Assembly: GCA_003133425.1 (NCBI GenBank)
Contig: PKXI01000392.1
Span: 1-7,140, forward strand
Length of the DNA: 7,140 bases
Direction of reading: 5' to 3'
DNA from: Acidobacteriaceae bacterium
GTDB lineage: Bacteria > Acidobacteriota > Terriglobia > Terriglobales > Acidobacteriaceae
In this document: positions 1 through 6,877 of the stretch, in pieces
Position numbering within the stretch: the stretch's first letter is position 1
Layout: every line of letters begins with the position of its first letter
Made by a program: the position numbers and the translations under genes
Notes under the pieces: generated by a model
What the model was told of the DNA's origin: nothing
Seen by the model: the letters and a program-made list of their open reading frames with translations, nothing else
Databases searched by the model: none

Positions 1-21
1 GCCAGCAAGCACAAGGCGATG
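1..21 (+). CDS. IS1182-family transposase, last codons of the 5' exon (partial)
   Basis: The seven codons read ASKHKAM. In IS1182-family transposases this string follows the first catalytic Asp (a DGTK-type motif) and directly precedes SYGRM, the five codons that open the frame at 682. The reading frame from the left edge is therefore the transposase itself, interrupted here by the group II intron. The initiator codon, the N-terminal DUF772-like region and the first catalytic Asp lie upstream of the window. The last six bases (16-21) also work as an intron-binding site, because they are the exact complement of 268-273 inside the intron. The exon is very short, but the match in sequence and frame makes coincidence unlikely. 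Confidence 0.8.
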
Positions 22-267
22 TTGTGCCATGAATGAGTTCGTAGTTTGAACTCAGTGCTGTATCCGAGATGGGGGTAGGTCCTCCGGAGTCGGCTTGCAG
101 GAGCGGGCTTCAAACAGCCGTAAGCTGCTGAACTGGAAACGGCAAGGTGGTGAACGTTACGGTTAAAAGGCGGGATTAAAACCCGTCATGTGTGGATTAG
201 AGAGCAGAGCGAAAGCAAACCACCGATGACGCATCGAAATGTGGAGACGACATCAAAACTGAGGACG

Positions 268-273
268 CATCGC
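268..273 (+). other. Candidate EBS1 of the group II intron
   Basis: CATCGC here is the exact reverse complement of GCGATG at 16-21, the last six bases of the 5' exon. Group II introns recognise their 5' splice site and insertion target through such an EBS1-IBS1 pairing, with IBS1 lying against the splice site. A G-U pair (267 with 22) could extend it by one. The position, about 250 nt into the intron in the 3' part of domain I, fits. A six-base match can occur by chance, so its location relative to the splice site is the main support. I could not identify a convincing EBS2. Confidence 0.55.
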
Positions 274-607
274 ACTCTCAGGAACAGCATAGCGAAGACC
301 TGTTTATTGGCTATGCGGTGTCCGGTGTATAGGTGGCTGGAATCTAATTCTGGCTTGGATATGGAACTTGGGAACTCTTCAGGTGATGTGAAGCGAAAAC
401 CCTATAAGTGAAGCCCACGAAGGGGGAAAGTAGTGATGCGCTTGAAGAGGACGGATTATCCCGCAGTAGTGTTGAAGCGCCTGTAATTGGCGGGGAGCGA
501 AGGGGATGACGCAGCTCAACGGAGGACTTGGCCAACTGGGAGACCAGGAAGAGCCTCTACTTCCAGAGAAGGCTTGTTTTCGCAAGAGGCAGGTGCATGG
601 CTGTGAC

Positions 608-681
608 GAGCCGTATGAACCGAGAGGTTCACGTACGGATCTGTGAGAGGCTGGGGGTGAAATTCCCCCGGCCTACTCGGC
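608..681 (+). ncRNA. Group II intron domains V and VI (catalytic core and branch point)
   Basis: Domain V spans 608-641, exactly 34 nt. Its lower stem is GAGCCGTAT with the matching 3' strand, the two-base AC bulge is at 631-632, and a five-pair upper stem (617-621 with 626-630) is closed by a GAGA tetraloop at 622-625. The catalytic AGC triad is at 609-611. Domain VI follows: bases 648-657 pair with 665-674 around a 7-nt loop, A675 is bulged out, and 645-647 pair with 676-678. A675 is the expected branch-point adenosine, six bases before the proposed last intron base at 681. There are two departures from consensus. G610 faces A639 where a G-U wobble is usual, and the intron ends in GC where AC or AT is usual. 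Confidence 0.9.
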
Positions 682-1620
682 AGTTATGGGCGCATGGGCG
701 AGGCGGAGAAACAGCTGAAGGATGAAATCGACGCGTTGTTGAAGCGGGCCGAGGCCGAGGATGCGGCCGAGGATGAAAAGTTCGGCAAGGGCCGCAGCGG
801 AGACGACCTGCCGGCGGAGTTGGCACGGCGGGAGAGCCGGTTGGCCAAGCTGCAAGAGGCCAAGAGGGCCTTGGAAGCCGAAGCCCGTCAGCAAGCCGAG
901 GAGAAGAAAGCGGCGGTGGAGGCCCGGATCGCCGAGCGCCACCAGCAGCAGGAGCGCACCGGCAAGAAGATACGCGGGGCAGAGCCTAAGGCGCCCGATC
1001 CGGATACGGAAACACCTAAGGCCAATGCGCAGCGCAACTTCACTGATCCGGAGAGCCGGATCATGCCCAGCGGCAGCCAGAAAGGCGCCTTCGTGCAGGG
1101 CTACAACGCGCAGATCGCCGTGGATGGGCAGGCGCAGATCATCGTGGCCGTGGACGTGATCCAGCAGACCACCGACAACCATCAACTGGCGCCGATGCTG
1201 GAGCAGACGGAGCGGAATACGGGAGCGTGGCCGCAGGCAGCCAGCGCCGATAGCGGCTACTGGAACCCGCAGCAGGTGGAGAAGATCCAGGGTCAGGGAA
1301 TCGATCTGCACGTGGCCACCGGCAAGCAGAAGCACGGAGAGACCGGCCAGCCGGTCGATGGAAGCCCGGTCGACGCTGGAGAAGAACTGTCTTTGCGGGA
1401 ACGGATGAAGAAAAAACTCGGGAGCGAAGCGGGACGGGACGTGTATCGAATGCGCAAGGCCATCGTGGAGCCGGTGTTCGGGCAGATCAAGGAATGGCGC
1501 GGGTTCCGGCGATTTTCGTTGCGTGGGCTGGACAAGGTTCGCGGCGAGTGGAAGCTGGTCTGCATGACCCACAATCTGCTCAAGCTGTTCCGATCAGGCT
1601 ACGTGCTTGAAACGTGCTGA
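682..1620 (+). CDS. IS1182-family transposase, 3' exon (catalytic domain)
   Basis: This is the C-terminal 312 codons of a DDE transposase that cuts and joins the IS ends. The frame opens with SYGRM directly at the intron junction, and an internal Met at 694 would be the first available start if unspliced. Residues below count from that Met. Residues 1-85 are Glu/Ala/Lys-rich and probably a helical coiled-coil insert. GYNAQIAVD (136-144) begins the catalytic fold, ADSGYW (185-190) carries the second catalytic Asp (D186), and the YRMRKAIVEPVFGQIKE block (251-267) carries the catalytic Glu (E259). It ends with a WKLVCMTHNLLKL helix. The first Asp lies upstream of the window. No stop or frameshift is seen in this exon. 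Without splicing the protein lacks the first Asp and the N-terminal domain and should be inactive. Similarity to the IS1182 / DDE_Tnp_1_6-type family is recognised from motifs, not from a search. Confidence 0.92.
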   Translation, partial: SYGRMGEAEKQLKDEIDALLKRAEAEDAAEDEKFGKGRSGDDLPAELARRESRLAKLQEAKRALEAEARQQAEEKKAAVEARIAERHQQQERTGKKIRGAEPKAPDPDTETPKANAQRNFTDPESRIMPSGSQKGAFVQGYNAQIAVDGQAQIIVAVDVIQQTTDNHQLAPMLEQTERNTGAWPQAASADSGYWNPQQVEKIQGQGIDLHVATGKQKHGETGQPVDGSPVDAGEELSLRERMKKKLGSEAGRDVYRMRKAIVEPVFGQIKEWRGFRRFSLRGLDKVRGEWKLVCMTHNLLKLFRSGYVLETC

Positions 1621-1780
1621 GGAAGACAGAAAGAAGCCGCGGCGGCGATAAAAGCCGGTGCCTGGGCGAAGGCGATGCTCAACGGCTGGCTGCTCGGCGT
1701 TTGCCTCCGTGAGCATCGACCAGAATCCGATGCCCACAAAGCCAAACCACAAAACCACTTCGGCTATCTCCGACAAACTC
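1621..1780. other. Convergent intergenic region, no gene
   Basis: These 160 nt separate the transposase stop from the stop of the minus-strand beta-barrel gene. Open frames crossing it are shadows of neighbouring genes. The right end of the IS should lie here, but no terminal repeat could be assigned. A short hairpin is possible at 1713-1733 (GCATCG pairing with CGATGC around a 9-nt loop). It has no following T-run in either direction, so it is not a convincing terminator. Confidence 0.5.
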
Positions 1781-2377
1781 CTAGAACACGCGCACGCGAA
1801 TGCCCGAGCTGACGCCAAGCGAAGACATGCTCCCAAAGGTGAACTGCGGCCAGAACTGATACTCAAAATCGGCCGCGCGGATGTAAATCCTGCGCGTGAG
1901 GTGATAGTCCAGACCGCCTCCGGCCGTAATCGTCAGGTATTTGCCCGTTGCCAGGTTATAAGGAAAATTGAAGTCGGCGAATCCCAACATCCCCTTGGCG
2001 TAGGGCTGCAGCTTGCCAAAGTTCCTGTGATACCGGGGCCCGATTGAATAGGTTTCCGCGTGTACATTGGCCGTCTGGTTCCACTCCAGCCAACGCCCCT
2101 CCGCTTCCAACCCAAACGGGCTCCGCGTGTCGACATCGACAAAACCTGTGATCCCGACCATTGTGCGCGCTCCGTATTGCAGGTAGTACCCTGACCCGGT
2201 GCCGCCCGCGGAAATCAGAAGCTTGCCTGAGTCCCCCGCCGGCACTACCTGGCCGTGCGCCGTGCCTGCCATGCCCAGCCACAATGCGAGTGCTACACAT
2301 GTACAGGCCAGGCGGACAGCGGGCCGCAAACTCCAATTCTCTTCACGGCGCGTTCTGAAATCGTGCAACATCTCCAT
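1781..2377 (-). CDS. Outer-membrane beta-barrel protein (OmpA/OmpX-like, about 8 strands)
   Basis: A 198-residue exported protein. Residues 1-19 are polar and basic, 20-38 form a hydrophobic signal core (VRLACTCVALALWLGMAG), and cleavage is likely after AHG at 42. The mature part of about 156 residues alternates polar and hydrophobic residues with many Gly and aromatic positions (YYLQYGARTMVG, GLEAEGRWLEW, YSIGPRYHRNF, LQPYAKGMLGFADF, YLTITAGGGLDYHL, IYIRAADFEYQFWP). It ends in VRVF, with the terminal Phe typical of outer-membrane proteins recognised by the BAM machinery. The size fits an eight-stranded barrel of the PF13505 kind. The start has an AGGAG at 2382-2386, 4 nt from the first ATG and 10 nt from a second ATG two codons in, so either may be used. 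It lies 45 nt downstream of the NHL/Ig gene on the same strand, probably cotranscribed. Its ligand or function is unknown. Confidence 0.87.
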   Translation of the reverse strand: MEMLHDFRTRREENWSLRPAVRLACTCVALALWLGMAGTAHGQVVPAGDSGKLLISAGGTGSGYYLQYGARTMVGITGFVDVDTRSPFGLEAEGRWLEWNQTANVHAETYSIGPRYHRNFGKLQPYAKGMLGFADFNFPYNLATGKYLTITAGGGLDYHLTRRIYIRAADFEYQFWPQFTFGSMSSLGVSSGIRVRVF

Positions 2378-2381
2378 CTCT

Positions 2382-2386
2382 CTCCT
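2382..2386 (-). promoter_or_regulatory. Ribosome binding site of the beta-barrel gene
   Basis: AGGAG on the minus strand, 4 nt before the ATG at 2377 and 10 nt before the in-frame ATG at 2371. A second AGGAG lies further upstream at 2395-2399. No promoter is apparent in the 45-nt gap, which is consistent with cotranscription from the upstream gene. Confidence 0.6.
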
Positions 2387-2422
2387 CGGGCCCTCTCCTG
2401 GGAATCACGCATCACGCCAGCT

Positions 2423-5400
2423 TCAGTTTGTGATGTTCAGAGTCACAGTCTGGTAGTGGATCGTGTTGGTGTTGGTTCCCGTGCCCGTTATCTGTATCAC
2501 GTATGTGCCCGGTGCCACACTGCCCATGCTGAACCCGCTGCAACCAGTCGCAAACAGAGCGGCCATTGAAAGAGCCATCACCAGCATCATCGTCAGCAGT
2601 CCCGTGTTCCGTTTGCGGAAGCGCCAGAAGACCCAGCCGAAGAACAGGCTGAAGGGCAGCAACAACCCCGCCAGATAAGTCCCGCGGCTGTCTCCACGCG
2701 CGTTCATGGCCGACGCGCCTCCACTTAACGGATTATTGGTGTCGATCGTGAGCTGATCGATGGCGATGCCGTTCGCCGGCAGAGCGATGCTGATGGGCGA
2801 GAAGTGGCACGTCACTCCCACCGGCAGCGATGCGCATCCCAGTCCGATCGTGTCTGCGAATCCATTGCTCGAGGTCAACGTGACGTTGATTGTGGCATTC
2901 TGCGTGGTCTTGATCGTCATTGTCGGCGGCGTCACGCCAACATTGAAGCTGCCGCCCGCGCCTGTGATCGAAACCGGAAGCGAAGTGGACGGGCTATGGG
3001 TTGCATCTCCGCCATAGACAGCCACAATGGTGTAGTTGCCGCTGCCCAGATTCGGAATCAGTGTCGCCACTCCGTTCGAATCCAGTGATGCCGTCCCCAC
3101 CACCGTAGTTCCACTGTTGAAGGTCACCGTGCCGGTCGGCACAGGTCCGGCGCCGGCCAGAACTGTGGCCACTAGGATTGGCTGCGGACTCGGACCGGCC
3201 GTCGCAGAGCCAACCAGGTCGGTTGTCGTGGCAATTCTCGACACCACCAGCTGATACTCACCGCTGCCAGTGCTCCCTTGGTCATTCGCGTCGCCGCCAT
3301 ACACCGCTGTAATTGTGTACGTGCCCGGCGCAAGTCCGGAGTAGGCCATCGTGGCTGTTCCGGTTGCGTCCAGCGTTGCCGGGGCGCCAAGCGCCGTGCC
3401 GTTCGCGCTGAAGGTAACGCTGCCCGTCGGAATCCCGCCGTTACCCGTGACCTTGGCCGTAAAGGTCACAGTGGCTCCAACGATTGTGGGATTCGGCGTA
3501 ACAATCACTGCCATCTGCGTCGCCGCCTGGATAACCGTCAGAGCCAGCGGCGCGGATGTGCTGGTGCCATCGTTGCCATCGCCCGCATACGCGGCCACAA
3601 TCGAGTACTGCCCAGGGGCCAGCATCGGATTGATCGTAGCCGTCCCCCCCGCGCCCAGCGCCACGCTGCCCAGCGTTGTTGTTCCACTCGTGAATGTCAC
3701 CATGCCCGTTGGCGTGGATGCGCCCGCAACCGGCTTTACCGTTGCCGTGATGGCCACTGCCGCTCCGGCCATGCCGGGATTCGGTGTGGCGCCCTCCGTC
3801 GTGGCCGTTTGCGTCTGATTCACCACCTGGCTCAGCGGCGAGGAGTTGCTGGCGGCGTTGTTCGCATCGCCCGCGTACGTTGCGGTGATGATATGCGTCG
3901 CGACATTCAGCGTAGACGTCGTGAACGTTGCAACTCCAGGGCTTCCCGCCAGTGTGCCCGTCCCAATTTTCACGCCCCCATCAAGAAAGTTCACACTTCC
4001 TGTAGCAGCCACGTTGCCGCCGGACGTAACGGCCGCGGCAAATGTAACCGGGGCTCCATAACTCGACGGGTTCTGCGAAGACACAACCGCGATCGTCGAC
4101 GCCGTTTGCACATTCTGGCTCAGAATTGTGGATGTACTGCCCTGAATATCGTTTGCCGCGTCGCCTCCGTAGGTCGCGGTAATGGAGTGTGCGCCGGACG
4201 TCAGCGCTGCGGTCGAGTAAGTTGCTGCCGCACTTCCATTCAGCACCACATTCCCCAGAATCGTGGTGCCGTCGAAGAACGTGATGGTGCCGTCTGGATT
4301 TACCCCACCGCCGCCTGGCGTCGTCACTGTCGCAGTAAACACGACGTTCTGGCCCAGGGCAGACGGGTTCACGCTGGATGCAAGATTGGTAACCGTGCCC
4401 TCAAGCACGTTCTGAATCAGAGGGAGCGTGGTCCCATTCGGGTCGGTCGAGTTGCTCGCCGAGTGGCCCACGTCCCCGCTGTACGACGCCGTGATCGTGT
4501 GTTTTCCCACCGCCAGCACAGCGCTCGTGAAAGTTGCAGTCGCGGTGGTGCCGGGAGCTCTCAAGGCAACGCCCGACGCCAGCGTAGCTGCTCCGTCGTA
4601 AAACGTCACCGTCCCGGTAAGATTCCCGGCGCTTGCGCCCGTGGTCACCGTCGCCGTGAAAGTCACGTTCTGGCCAAACCCCGATGGATTCAGGCTCGAC
4701 GTCACCGTCGTGGTCGTTGAGTTAACCGTGGTTGCATCCCCAGCCACTTGGATGTCGAGCGGCGAGTCGGTCGTGTCTCCCGGATTGCCGACAACAATAT
4801 TGCCCAACACTGGATTTCCGGCCACCGAGGGTGCAAAGACCGCGCCGATCGTGCAATCGCTCCCGACTGCCAGAAACGGACTGCCGGTCGTGCAGGTTGT
4901 CGTAGCGCCGTCCAGAGCCGCATTCGTGCCCGCAACCATGGCCGTCAGATCGAGGGGCAGATTCCCGTCGTTCTCAACCGTCTGGCTCATCGGCGTGGAT
5001 TTATCGAACTGGCGGACCGCCGTTTTGTCGTACAGCGAGGCAAAGTTGCCCTGGACCTCCCGAACCACCATGCTGAGCGTATCGGCAACAAACAGATTGC
5101 CCCTGCCGTCCAGGTAGAGACCCGTGGGTCCATAAAGGTACACCCCATTGACAGCGCCGTTGAAGTAACAGGTACCCACTCCGCTCACGATCAGAGTGGA
5201 GATAAACCCGGTTGCCGGAACCACCTTGCGGATCGCGCTGTTCTGCGTGTCGGCGACAAACACATTCCCGACAGCATCCACAGCCACTCCGGAGGGCCCC
5301 CACAACTCCGCCTTGTTGGCCGCCGCGCCGTCGCCCAAATAGCCCGACGACCCGTTTCCGGCAAATGTTGTCATCGTGCTGCCTGCGCTAATCGCGCCCC

Positions 5401-6634
5401 CTACGGCCGCAACCTCGCGAACCCGATTGTTCGCCGTGTCTGGGATATACATGTTGCCCGCAGCGTCGAACGCCACCGCGTGGGGAAAATTCAGTTCCGC
5501 CGCCGTAGCCGGTCCGTTATCCCCTGCGTAGCCTCCATTGCCGTTCATTTGGGTGAACCCGTTGCCGGCTACCGTGGAAATCATCCCGGTTGCGGCCGTC
5601 ACCATGCGGATGCGATGGTTCGACGTGTCGGCGATGTAGAGCGTGCCTTTGCTGTCCACCGTCACACCGTCGGGCAGGTTGAGTTGTGCTGAATTGGCCT
5701 GGCAGCCATCCCCAACCGTGTCGCTCTGCCCCGCACACCCGCTGCCGCCGCCGGCCGTCGTGGTAATCACGCCGGTTGACGCTGAAATCATCCGAATCAC
5801 ATTGTTCCCGGCATCCGCAATGTACAGATTGCCCGCCCCATCCAGAGCCACGCCTGAAGGATCGTTGACCGTCGCATTCGAGGCCAGCCCGCCATCCCCC
5901 GTATATGCAGGGTCTCCATTGCCGGCAATGGTTGAGATAATGCCCGCGCCGGAGCAGGTGGTTCCTTTGATCGTGGCGCTCGTGGCGCTGCCACAGACCA
6001 TGCGGATCCGGTTGTGGCCGCTGTCGGCAATATACATGTTGCCTGCGCCGTCCAGCACCGCGCTGGAGGGTAGGTAAAGCTCCGCTGACTTAGCCGCGGT
6101 CCCATCCCGCACCGAGCCCAGATATGTGCCATTGCCCGCAACCGGAAGCAGGTTCCCAGGAGCCAGTACACCCAACGATCCCGACCCCGTACCGGAGAGA
6201 TACGCTATCCCCAGAACGTTGCTCCCGGCATCCAGAAGCACCACCGCACCCACGCGCAGTCCGGGAACCGCGGGAGTGAACGTAACCGATTCCGTACAGG
6301 TTTGACCGGCGCTCGCAAACGACGCCGTCCCGCAAGTTGATGCGCCCAGGCCCTGCGCAAACTCCAGCCCCGTCGCTCCCAAAGCTAGTATCTCAACGCT
6401 GTTTACCGTTCCCGCAGCCTGCGCTGTAACCGTCACGCCTTGGGACCCGGACACAACACCGACAGCCTGCGTGCCGAATTGCGCCTGCGCGCCCGTCGCC
6501 ATCAGCAGAGCCGCCAGTCCCAGTGTCCAAATCCGCCTGCACCGCTGCCCCTGCGCTGACGCGTCTGCTGCTGGAGCCTGCAAACGGCTCCCATGATTCT
6601 GTTGAACGACAACTTCGGCTTGTGGGCGGCTCAT
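2423..6634 (-). CDS. Secreted NHL-propeller / Ig-like repeat surface protein with C-terminal membrane insert
   Basis: A 1403-residue protein. The ATG at 6634 is chosen because GGGAG lies 6 nt upstream. The frame extends back to a TTG at 6739 but without a comparable site. A long N-region precedes a signal core (35-48) with cleavage near AQA51. Segment 60-150, with Cys101/Cys113 and a VTFTP motif, resembles an ASPM/SPD-2/Hydin domain. Six NHL repeats (starting about 187, 257, 318, 380, 443 and 499, each with GNxYIADxxNxRIR-like cores) predict a six-bladed propeller. A second Hydin-like segment (545-633) has Cys581/Cys594. Six Big_3-type Ig-like repeats follow (about 641, 747, 845, 942, 1039 and 1136), each closing with an ITAxYxGDxN-like strand. 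A seventh, different Ig-like domain (1228-1300) leads into two hydrophobic helices (1320-1338 and 1346-1363) around a basic RFRKR turn, a lipobox-like ATGC (Cys1365), and a last PGTYVIQITG strand pair. It is probably a surface adhesin or scaffold; the ligand is unknown. Confidence 0.93.
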   Translation of the reverse strand: MSRPQAEVVVQQNHGSRLQAPAADASAQGQRCRRIWTLGLAALLMATGAQAQFGTQAVGVVSGSQGVTVTAQAAGTVNSVEILALGATGLEFAQGLGASTCGTASFASAGQTCTESVTFTPAVPGLRVGAVVLLDAGSNVLGIAYLSGTGSGSLGVLAPGNLLPVAGNGTYLGSVRDGTAAKSAELYLPSSAVLDGAGNMYIADSGHNRIRMVCGSATSATIKGTTCSGAGIISTIAGNGDPAYTGDGGLASNATVNDPSGVALDGAGNLYIADAGNNVIRMISASTGVITTTAGGGSGCAGQSDTVGDGCQANSAQLNLPDGVTVDSKGTLYIADTSNHRIRMVTAATGMISTVAGNGFTQMNGNGGYAGDNGPATAAELNFPHAVAFDAAGNMYIPDTANNRVREVAAVGGAISAGSTMTTFAGNGSSGYLGDGAAANKAELWGPSGVAVDAVGNVFVADTQNSAIRKVVPATGFISTLIVSGVGTCYFNGAVNGVYLYGPTGLYLDGRGNLFVADTLSMVVREVQGNFASLYDKTAVRQFDKSTPMSQTVENDGNLPLDLTAMVAGTNAALDGATTTCTTGSPFLAVGSDCTIGAVFAPSVAGNPVLGNIVVGNPGDTTDSPLDIQVAGDATTVNSTTTTVTSSLNPSGFGQNVTFTATVTTGASAGNLTGTVTFYDGAATLASGVALRAPGTTATATFTSAVLAVGKHTITASYSGDVGHSASNSTDPNGTTLPLIQNVLEGTVTNLASSVNPSALGQNVVFTATVTTPGGGGVNPDGTITFFDGTTILGNVVLNGSAAATYSTAALTSGAHSITATYGGDAANDIQGSTSTILSQNVQTASTIAVVSSQNPSSYGAPVTFAAAVTSGGNVAATGSVNFLDGGVKIGTGTLAGSPGVATFTTSTLNVATHIITATYAGDANNAASNSSPLSQVVNQTQTATTEGATPNPGMAGAAVAITATVKPVAGASTPTGMVTFTSGTTTLGSVALGAGGTATINPMLAPGQYSIVAAYAGDGNDGTSTSAPLALTVIQAATQMAVIVTPNPTIVGATVTFTAKVTGNGGIPTGSVTFSANGTALGAPATLDATGTATMAYSGLAPGTYTITAVYGGDANDQGSTGSGEYQLVVSRIATTTDLVGSATAGPSPQPILVATVLAGAGPVPTGTVTFNSGTTVVGTASLDSNGVATLIPNLGSGNYTIVAVYGGDATHSPSTSLPVSITGAGGSFNVGVTPPTMTIKTTQNATINVTLTSSNGFADTIGLGCASLPVGVTCHFSPISIALPANGIAIDQLTIDTNNPLSGGASAMNARGDSRGTYLAGLLLPFSLFFGWVFWRFRKRNTGLLTMMLVMALSMAALFATGCSGFSMGSVAPGTYVIQITGTGTNTNTIHYQTVTLNITN
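2540..2683 (-). other. Two-helix membrane insert with lipobox-like Cys in the surface protein
   Basis: This encodes residues 1318-1365 of the NHL/Ig protein. Hydrophobic helix one runs from about 1320 to 1338, a basic turn RFRKR at 1338-1342 would stay cytoplasmic, and helix two (about 1346-1363, Met/Leu-rich) ends in FATGC. Sequence on both sides looks like one Ig-type domain: 1228-1300 supplies the early strands (GFADTIGLGC, LPVGVTCHFSP) and 1375-1402 the last two (GTYVIQITGTG, HYQTVTLNIT). The insert therefore seems to sit inside a domain. I recall similar C-termini in other acidobacterial proteins. Whether the Cys is lipidated is unknown. Confidence 0.65.
2960..4714 (-). repeat. Six tandem Ig-like (Big_3 type) domains
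   Basis: This encodes residues 641-1225 of the surface protein. Each unit of 90-105 residues starts with a T-x-x-x-N/P-P strand, contains a TGxVTF core strand (variants: DGTITF, TGSVNF, TGMVTF), and ends with G-x-x-x-I-T/V-A-x-Y-x-G-D. The repeats have diverged at protein level and I see no long exact DNA repeats among them. This suggests an old duplication and not a recently expanding array. They probably form a rigid stalk between the propeller and the membrane insert. Confidence 0.85.
5048..6157 (-). repeat. Six NHL repeats encoding a beta-propeller
   Basis: This encodes residues 160-529 of the surface protein. Six related units are spaced 56-70 residues apart. Each has a P-x-G/A-V-x-x-D-x-x-GN-hydrophobic-aromatic-hydrophobic-A-D pattern followed by N-R/x-I-R. 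Most are linked by a Gly/Asn-rich AGNG...GDGG...A loop. Six units match a closed six-bladed propeller. The fifth and sixth are the most divergent, with NSAIRKV and SMVVREV in place of NRIRMV. Confidence 0.88.
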
Positions 6635-6640
6635 ATCCAA

Positions 6641-6645
6641 CTCCC
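6641..6645 (-). promoter_or_regulatory. Ribosome binding site of the NHL/Ig gene
   Basis: GGGAG on the minus strand, 6 nt before the ATG at 6634. It decides the start: the in-frame TTG at 6739 and ATG at 6718 lack a comparable site, and the 35 residues they would add are polar and would push the signal peptide deep inside the protein. Confidence 0.65.
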
Positions 6646-6877
6646 GATCCGATCTTCTGAAATGTGCGATTGTTGCCGTTGCTTGGCTGTGACCCGTTCC
6701 ATCCTCACCGCCGCGCATCGAGCGCTCCCGCCGATTCAAAGTTCCTGGGCGCCGTCCTGAGGTCTGGTCCTCGCGAACGTCGCCAAATCCTGATAGGGCC
6801 CTGTTCTCGCGCCAGCCGTCTGAATCTGGGGGCTTTTTCGCTCGAAATAATGTAAGAAACTGTCTTATTGTTCTTTA

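What the first reader, a model, noticed from the sequence alone, without database searches (positions are those of the whole stretch)
1..700. Group II intron sits exactly between conserved codons of an IS1182 transposase and would splice in frame
Bases 1-21 read ASKHKAM and bases 682-696 read SYGRM. Together they rebuild a conserved IS1182 stretch just after the first catalytic Asp. The intron is 660 nt by this boundary, and removing it restores the frame without adding or losing a codon. The transposase can only be full length after splicing, so IS mobility would depend on intron splicing. Group II introns nested in mobile elements are known; insertion at this conserved catalytic site offers a target shared by many IS1182 copies.
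Basis: partly seen in the sequence, partly recalled or inferred. Interest (0 to 1): 0.7.

Follow-up and report, generated by a model that had tools for sequence, protein, structure and literature searches.

The report
ORF-less group II intron inside IS1182
A small self-splicing RNA with no protein gene of its own sits exactly between two codons of a jumping gene's transposase, and cutting it out would restore a protein identical to an uninterrupted copy known elsewhere; the arrangement is of a known kind, but the intron begins and ends with unusual bases that appear to have changed together.

Summary
Confirmed. Window 22-681 is a 660-nt group II intron without a protein gene, between codons M and S of an IS1182 transposase. 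All 19 of 66 loci readable at the site agree. Both splice sites are also fixed by coevolution with the exons: EBS1 268-273 with IBS1 16-21, EBS3 330 with IBS3 682.

An intron inside a transposase is known (RmInt1), and so are mobile ORF-less introns. Of 25 introns compared, 14 have a pyrimidine first, all with G second-last; 11 have G first, none with G second-last. The tree needs at least two switches of both ends together, as expected if these bases touch. Relatives sit at unlike sites (other introns, a CPBP-type and a DUF4440 gene), mostly with EBS1 refitted. Splicing and mobility are inferred; no RNA was seen.

The parts
1..21 (+). End of 5' exon: IS1182 transposase codons ASKHKAM; the window starts here
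   Evidence: Identical to P0001/P0002 at this place; 19 of 19 motif-matching empty sites
16..21 (+). IBS1 (GCGATG)
   Evidence: Six Watson-Crick pairs with EBS1 268-273; scoring over 33 introns peaks at this boundary
22..681 (+). ORF-less group II intron, 660 nt, starts UUGUG, ends GGC
   Evidence: Rfam, empty sites, EBS1/EBS3 coevolution, consensus fold
22..22 (+). First intron base: U where the consensus and the relative L069 have G
71..190 (+). Domain I segment matched by RF01999
   Evidence: 92.6 bits
268..273 (+). EBS1 (CATCGC)
330..330 (+). EBS3 (U), pairs with first base of 3' exon
   Evidence: Pairs with the +1 base in 23 of 24 introns, best of all testable columns, z 7.6 (L132a and L125 left out of that test)
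608..641 (+). Domain V, with AGC at 609-611 (catalytic triad, recalled)
   Evidence: RF00029 match 606-681; fold
644..679 (+). Domain VI hairpin with bulged A675, the likely branch point, seventh base from the 3' end
   Evidence: Fold; A675 the same in 20 of 20 aligned introns
680..680 (+). Second-last intron base: G where the consensus has A
682..1620 (+). 3' exon: IS1182 transposase from SYGRM to the stop codon (the mechanical ORF starts at ATG 694)
   Evidence: Pfam DDE_Tnp_1 5.1e-21; identical to P0001/P0002
682..682 (+). IBS3 (A)

Best explanation
A small group II intron of IIB-like exon recognition, lacking its own reverse transcriptase/maturase, inserted by reverse splicing into the sense strand of an IS1182 transposase gene between codons M and S. 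Target choice came from EBS1 pairing with GCGATG and EBS3 pairing with the next base. A maturase from a related intron elsewhere in the cell probably helps it splice and move. After splicing the transposase reading frame is whole; without splicing translation stops after four codons of intron. Its first and second-last bases (U and G) replace the usual G and A as a matched pair. Shown by sequence: identity, boundaries, frame, exon pairings, absence of an ORF, the joint difference at the ends. Inferred: splicing, help by a maturase in trans, dependence of IS movement on splicing, physical contact of the two end bases. The confidence given is for what the thing is and where its boundaries lie; it overlaps with the rival that this copy no longer splices.
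For: Rfam D1 and D5/D6. Joined exons identical, 319 of 319, to uninterrupted transposases, unique boundary. 19 of 19 motif-matching empty sites. EBS1-IBS1 over 33 introns: own pairs mean 10.59 of 12, exchanged pairs 5.65 (sd 0.38), 0 of 20,000 shuffles as high, best at offset 0. EBS3 found without prior position, 23 of 24. Fold of intron z -3.96 against 20 shuffles, D5-D6 z -5.15; 140 of 188 consensus pairs show double changes in at least one row. Related ORF-less introns whose removal leaves an open frame in other genes: L095 (PF02517 match spans the junction) and L096 (DUF4440 match begins 15 residues after it).
Against: No RNA evidence. The window's genome is not held, so no maturase gene could be sought in it. 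No EBS2-IBS2 pairing was found convincingly. At EBS1 the neighbouring offset -1 scores nearly as well on average (9.91 against 10.59), 4 of 33 introns pair poorly (L132a 3.0, L125 4.5, L124iep 6.0, L103 7.5) and 4 more score 9.0; some of the 33 are near copies sharing a target. First base and second-last base depart from GUGYG...AY.
Confidence: 0.93

Rival explanations
1. The intron starts at GUGCC (base 24) and TT is either exon or a 5' extension as in fungal rRNA introns that splice upstream of GUGYG; canonical splicing would then frameshift the transposase.
For: GUGCC at 24 resembles GUGYG; introns that splice 1-33 nt upstream of GUGYG are known (PMC4424553 passages).
Against: Close relative L069 aligns without a gap, GUGUGCCAUGA against UUGUGCCAUGA, so the change is a substitution at base 1. 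EBS1 pairing is best at 21/22, clearly worse at +2 (7.09). Only 21/22 with 681/682 gives the protein of the uninterrupted copies. A bulged branch-point A is present.
Confidence: 0.03
2. A dead insertion: the intron is what it seems but no longer splices, and the IS copy is a fossil. (Overlaps with the best explanation as to identity and boundaries.)
For: No maturase gene in the window; no RNA data; RmInt1 splices its IS poorly, under 1% of exons (PMC4238363 passages).
Against: The splicing elements that could be tested (EBS1-IBS1, EBS3-IBS3, D5, D6 with bulged A) are intact; EBS2 could not be tested. The 3' exon has no stop and is identical to uninterrupted copies, so the insertion is probably recent.
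Confidence: 0.2
3. Assembly chimera joining an intron from one place to a transposase from another.
For: Only 21 nt of upstream exon are in the window, at its edge.
Against: Both flanks match the same transposase codon for codon at a pairing-predicted site; P0003, a 98% relative starting at the same M on a 6,545-base contig, hints at a second interrupted copy (contig not read).
Confidence: 0.03

Closest known systems
RmInt1 in ISRm2011-2 (Sinorhizobium meliloti)
   Same: Group II intron inside an IS transposase gene with stops in the intron, so splicing is needed for the transposase; 3' end also departs from AY (CC) (PMC4238363 passages)
   Different: RmInt1 carries an ORF (class D) and sits in an IS630-family element (PMC5894124 passages); here no ORF, IS1182, start U and end GC
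ORF-less TeI3 introns of Thermosynechococcus elongatus
   Same: Mobile ORF-less introns with EBS fitted to their targets, driven by maturases of other introns, forming introns within introns (PMC2882425 passages)
Fungal rRNA introns and C.te.I1 with altered 5' splice sites
   Same: Deviation at the 5' end (PMC4424553 passages)
   Different: Those splice upstream of GUGYG and the fungal set lost EBS2 and branch-site motifs; here base 1 is substituted and the bulged A is kept
Caballeronia SBC1/SBC2 plasmid introns (L067, L068)
   Same: 79% identical, ORF-less, UUGUG...GGC ends
   Different: Inserted in domain I of an ltrA-bearing intron rather than in an IS

Membership tests
Group II intron | Domain V and VI at the 3' end with bulged A | tested here: met
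   RF00029 55.3 bits; bulged A675
Group II intron | Domain I with EBS1 pairing to IBS1 in the 5' exon | tested here: met
Group II intron | Consensus ends GUGYG...AY (a consensus, broken by accepted members such as RmInt1) | tested here: not met
   UUGUG...GC: bases 2-5 and the last base fit, base 1 and second-last base do not; RmInt1 ends CC
IIB-type exon recognition | EBS3-IBS3 pairing of the first 3' exon base (shared with IIC) | tested here: met
   23 of 24 introns
IIB-type exon recognition | EBS2-IBS2 pairing | tested here: inconclusive
   Best scan gains weak
Mobile group II retroelement | Encodes its own reverse transcriptase/maturase | tested here: not met
   No ORF over 73 aa lies within 22-681
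Intron mobilised in trans by another intron's maturase | A related maturase gene in the same cell | tested here: inconclusive
   Window genome not held; of 11 relatives' draft genomes 9 hold ltrA-like genes at E 1e-40 or better, 2 (G751, G597) do not
IS1182 transposase | NF033551 above cut-off | tested here: met
   Met by uninterrupted relative P0001 (383.8, cut-off 270); the window fragment alone scores 191.6, below it
Group II intron | Splices in vivo or in vitro | not testable with these tools
   No RNA data

The most novel reading that the evidence does not exclude
A lineage of mobile, ORF-less bacterial group II introns has swapped the near-universal first G and the usual second-last A for a pyrimidine-G pair (U1 or C1 with G at -2), with at least two switches of both ends together on the tree (gains or losses), so nature has made the double mutant of the first-to-second-last contact needed for the second splicing step, and the pair may act as a wobble or Watson-Crick pair. 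Such introns escape finders that rely on a maturase gene or on GUGYG...AY.
Probability: 0.55. Interest if true: 0.62.

Novelty: new variant of a known kind. Interest (0 to 1): 0.5.

Why it matters
The nested arrangement adds IS1182 to the transposons whose transposase gene is interrupted by an intron, and here the uninterrupted protein is known letter for letter. The joint change at the intron ends gives a natural test of the contact between the first and second-last intron bases, and points to a set of ORF-less introns that software can miss: one published pipeline states that introns without a maturase gene are missed (PMC4028801 passage).

Tried and rejected
A second case in IS1182: L118 (G747) ends CTCGGC|AGTTAC, which looked like the same site, but the exon is an IS5-like fragment (by eye) and the intron is cut short; rejected. 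Pattern search for the junction in viral contigs gave 72 stretches; none matches the intron at E 1e-5. Search of viral contigs with the transposase gave one locus, L219, uninterrupted. A maturase-bearing intron with U first was sought at 25 ltrA-like places in 11 genomes: BLAST tied 10 of the 25 loci to this intron family. Of these 10, 4 matched through the ORF-less U1/C1 introns already known (L227-L229, L238), 2 maturase introns show G1 (L223, L230), in 3 (L220-L222) the aligned part begins too far in to read base 1, and in 1 (L235) only a 57-nt piece matched. So none with U first was seen, which does not exclude one. EBS2 not found.

Papers: 'group II intron' with IS1182 gave 8 papers, none on this by title and start of abstract; UUGYG or UUGUG with group II intron gave none relevant in a listing of 18; group II intron, penultimate, covariation and splice site together gave 0; group II intron, Acidobacteri-, transposase and interrupt together gave 0. 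Chanfreau and Jacquier 1993 and Simon et al. 2008 are not held, so an earlier report of U1/G-2 introns cannot be excluded. All papers cited were seen as passages only.

Rows dropped: L125 (long branch, 915 extra bases) left out of the second tree and of the EBS3 test; L132a left out of the EBS3 test; L068 not counted beside L067 (sister strain); L101 not counted beside L127 (same place); L141 added to the second tree.

Full report
What was claimed and what is there. Both stretches are there and in the same frame. Rfam independently finds group II D1-D4 at 71-190 and D5/D6 at 606-681, the latter ending exactly at 681. The longest ORF of 60 aa or more that lies within the intron is 73 aa; none was searched as a protein. 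Frame 1 runs into a stop after four intron codons and has 9 stops in the intron.

Empty sites. A protein search (7,983 matches, best 120 listed) found two 472-aa transposases, P0001 and P0002, whose last 319 residues equal the window's joined exons with no difference. Of the 120 listed relatives 105 carry an uninterrupted ASKHKAxSY; the other 15 are shortened or differ in residues there, among them P0003 and P0010, which begin at the same methionine as the window's downstream ORF. At the DNA level, of 66 related loci in named genomes 19 matched the motif pattern, and all 19 read ATG (18) or CTG (1) then AG[CT]; 12 of 19 have the exact GCGATG and +1 A. None of the 66 holds the intron. P0001 is an IS1182 transposase by NCBIfam.

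Splice sites from coevolution. The nearest relative, on Caballeronia plasmids (79%), is also ORF-less and sits inside domain I of another group II intron that carries ltrA. Its EBS1 loop reads CACCAC against its own exon GTGGTG, where the window reads CATCGC against GCGATG; L069 reads TTAGGC against GCCTAA. Over 33 introns, pairing of EBS1 with the own exon averages 10.59 of 12 against 5.65 (sd 0.38) for exchanged exons, 0 of 20,000 shuffles as high, and is best when the 5' splice site is at 21/22 (means 9.91 one base before, 8.86 one base after); 25 of 33 score 9.5 or more, 4 score 9.0, 4 score 7.5 or less. These rows are not all independent, since some share a target. A scan of all testable alignment columns for one that pairs with the first 3' exon base picked window U330, 23 of 24 introns, z 7.6, next best 3.5. 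This behaves like EBS3 of IIB introns and fixes the 3' splice site at 681/682. The consensus fold of 20 ORF-less relatives has 188 pairs, 140 with changes on both sides in at least one row, on an ordinary MAFFT alignment.

The ends. With boundaries fixed three ways, the intron begins UUGUG and ends GGC. [quoted passage not shown] L069 aligns without a gap as GUGUGCC...CUCGAC, so base 1 and base -2 differ by substitution. In 25 introns with both ends (window included, L125 left out, L141 added) the counts are U1/G-2 13, C1/G-2 1, G1/A-2 8, G1/C-2 3, no other combination. The tree, built without three bases at each end, puts the window and the Caballeronia intron (both U/G) with L069, L092 and L116 (all G/A) in one starred group (100/100), away from the other U/G introns; holding all U/C introns together is rejected (AU p 0.0003). 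The grouping was formed after a first tree was seen, which weakens that p. At least two switches are needed, and both ends go together in both; two events cannot reach significance by a sign test. The first and second-last bases are reported to interact between the two splicing steps (PMC4238363 and PMC3669008 passages). Coupled replacement is the simplest account; chance in two events plus descent is not excluded.

An ORF-less family at many sites. The U1 introns lie at unlike sites, mostly with EBS1 fitted to each: a CPBP/Rce1-like gene (L095) and a DUF4440 gene (L096), both leaving an open frame when joined, the Pfam match spanning the junction in L095 but starting 15 residues after it in L096; domain VI of an ltrA-bearing intron (L097, domain by eye); domain I of another U1 intron (L099, where the inner one starts with C); and one shared site, GGTGGTGTGG[CG]AGG, in 5 genomes (L117, L123, L125, L127, L141). 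In L123 and L127 Rfam finds another class of group II domain I upstream (RF02001), and L123 has a TIGR04416 maturase there, so the shared site lies, by eye, just after domain V of that host intron. At that site the exon varies (GGCAGG or GGGAGG) and EBS1 varies with it (L099 outer and L141). One U/G member is on a Methylosinus plasmid (L129). Maturase-bearing relatives whose 5' ends could be read start with G.

How it most likely works. Reverse splicing into the IS, guided by EBS1/EBS3 and helped by a maturase in trans, then splicing from the transposase mRNA. ORF-less introns driven by other introns' maturases are shown in T. elongatus (PMC2882425 passages), and RmInt1 shows an intron in a transposase whose poor splicing may restrain the IS (PMC4238363 passages). 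Steps shown: sequence, boundaries, frame, pairings. Steps inferred: splicing, trans help, effect on the IS.

Novelty. Intron in an IS transposase: known. ORF-less, mobile, nested introns: known. IS1182 as host, and the matched U/G ends in a mobile lineage: not found in the searches listed, but the most relevant older papers are not held. Hence a new variant of a known kind.

Noticed in passing
window 2423-6739 (-) and 1781-2377 (-): A 1438-aa protein with NHL and six bacterial Ig-like repeats (Pfam Big_3_5) followed by an OMP_b-brl beta-barrel protein, beside the IS.
   Followed up: no
L132 798-2731 (Neochlamydia plasmid pS13): Three ORF-less group II introns head to tail, 644-645 nt each, the end of one touching the start of the next.
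   Followed up: partly
L124 about 1240-3790 (G740), also L111: An ORF-less intron (G1/A-2) directly followed by a related copy with a maturase gene.
   Followed up: partly
L117, L123, L125, L127, L141: Same target GGTGGTGTGG[CG]AGG used in 5 genomes, just after domain V of another class of group II intron where that could be read; looks like a homing site in other introns.
   Followed up: partly
L099 1163-2118 (G694): A C1/G-2 ORF-less intron inserted in domain I of a U1 ORF-less intron, itself apparently inside another group II intron: three nested layers.
   Followed up: partly
P0003 (308 aa, contig of 6,545 bases): 98% relative of the window's downstream ORF that starts at the same methionine: possible second intron-bearing copy of this IS.
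   Followed up: no
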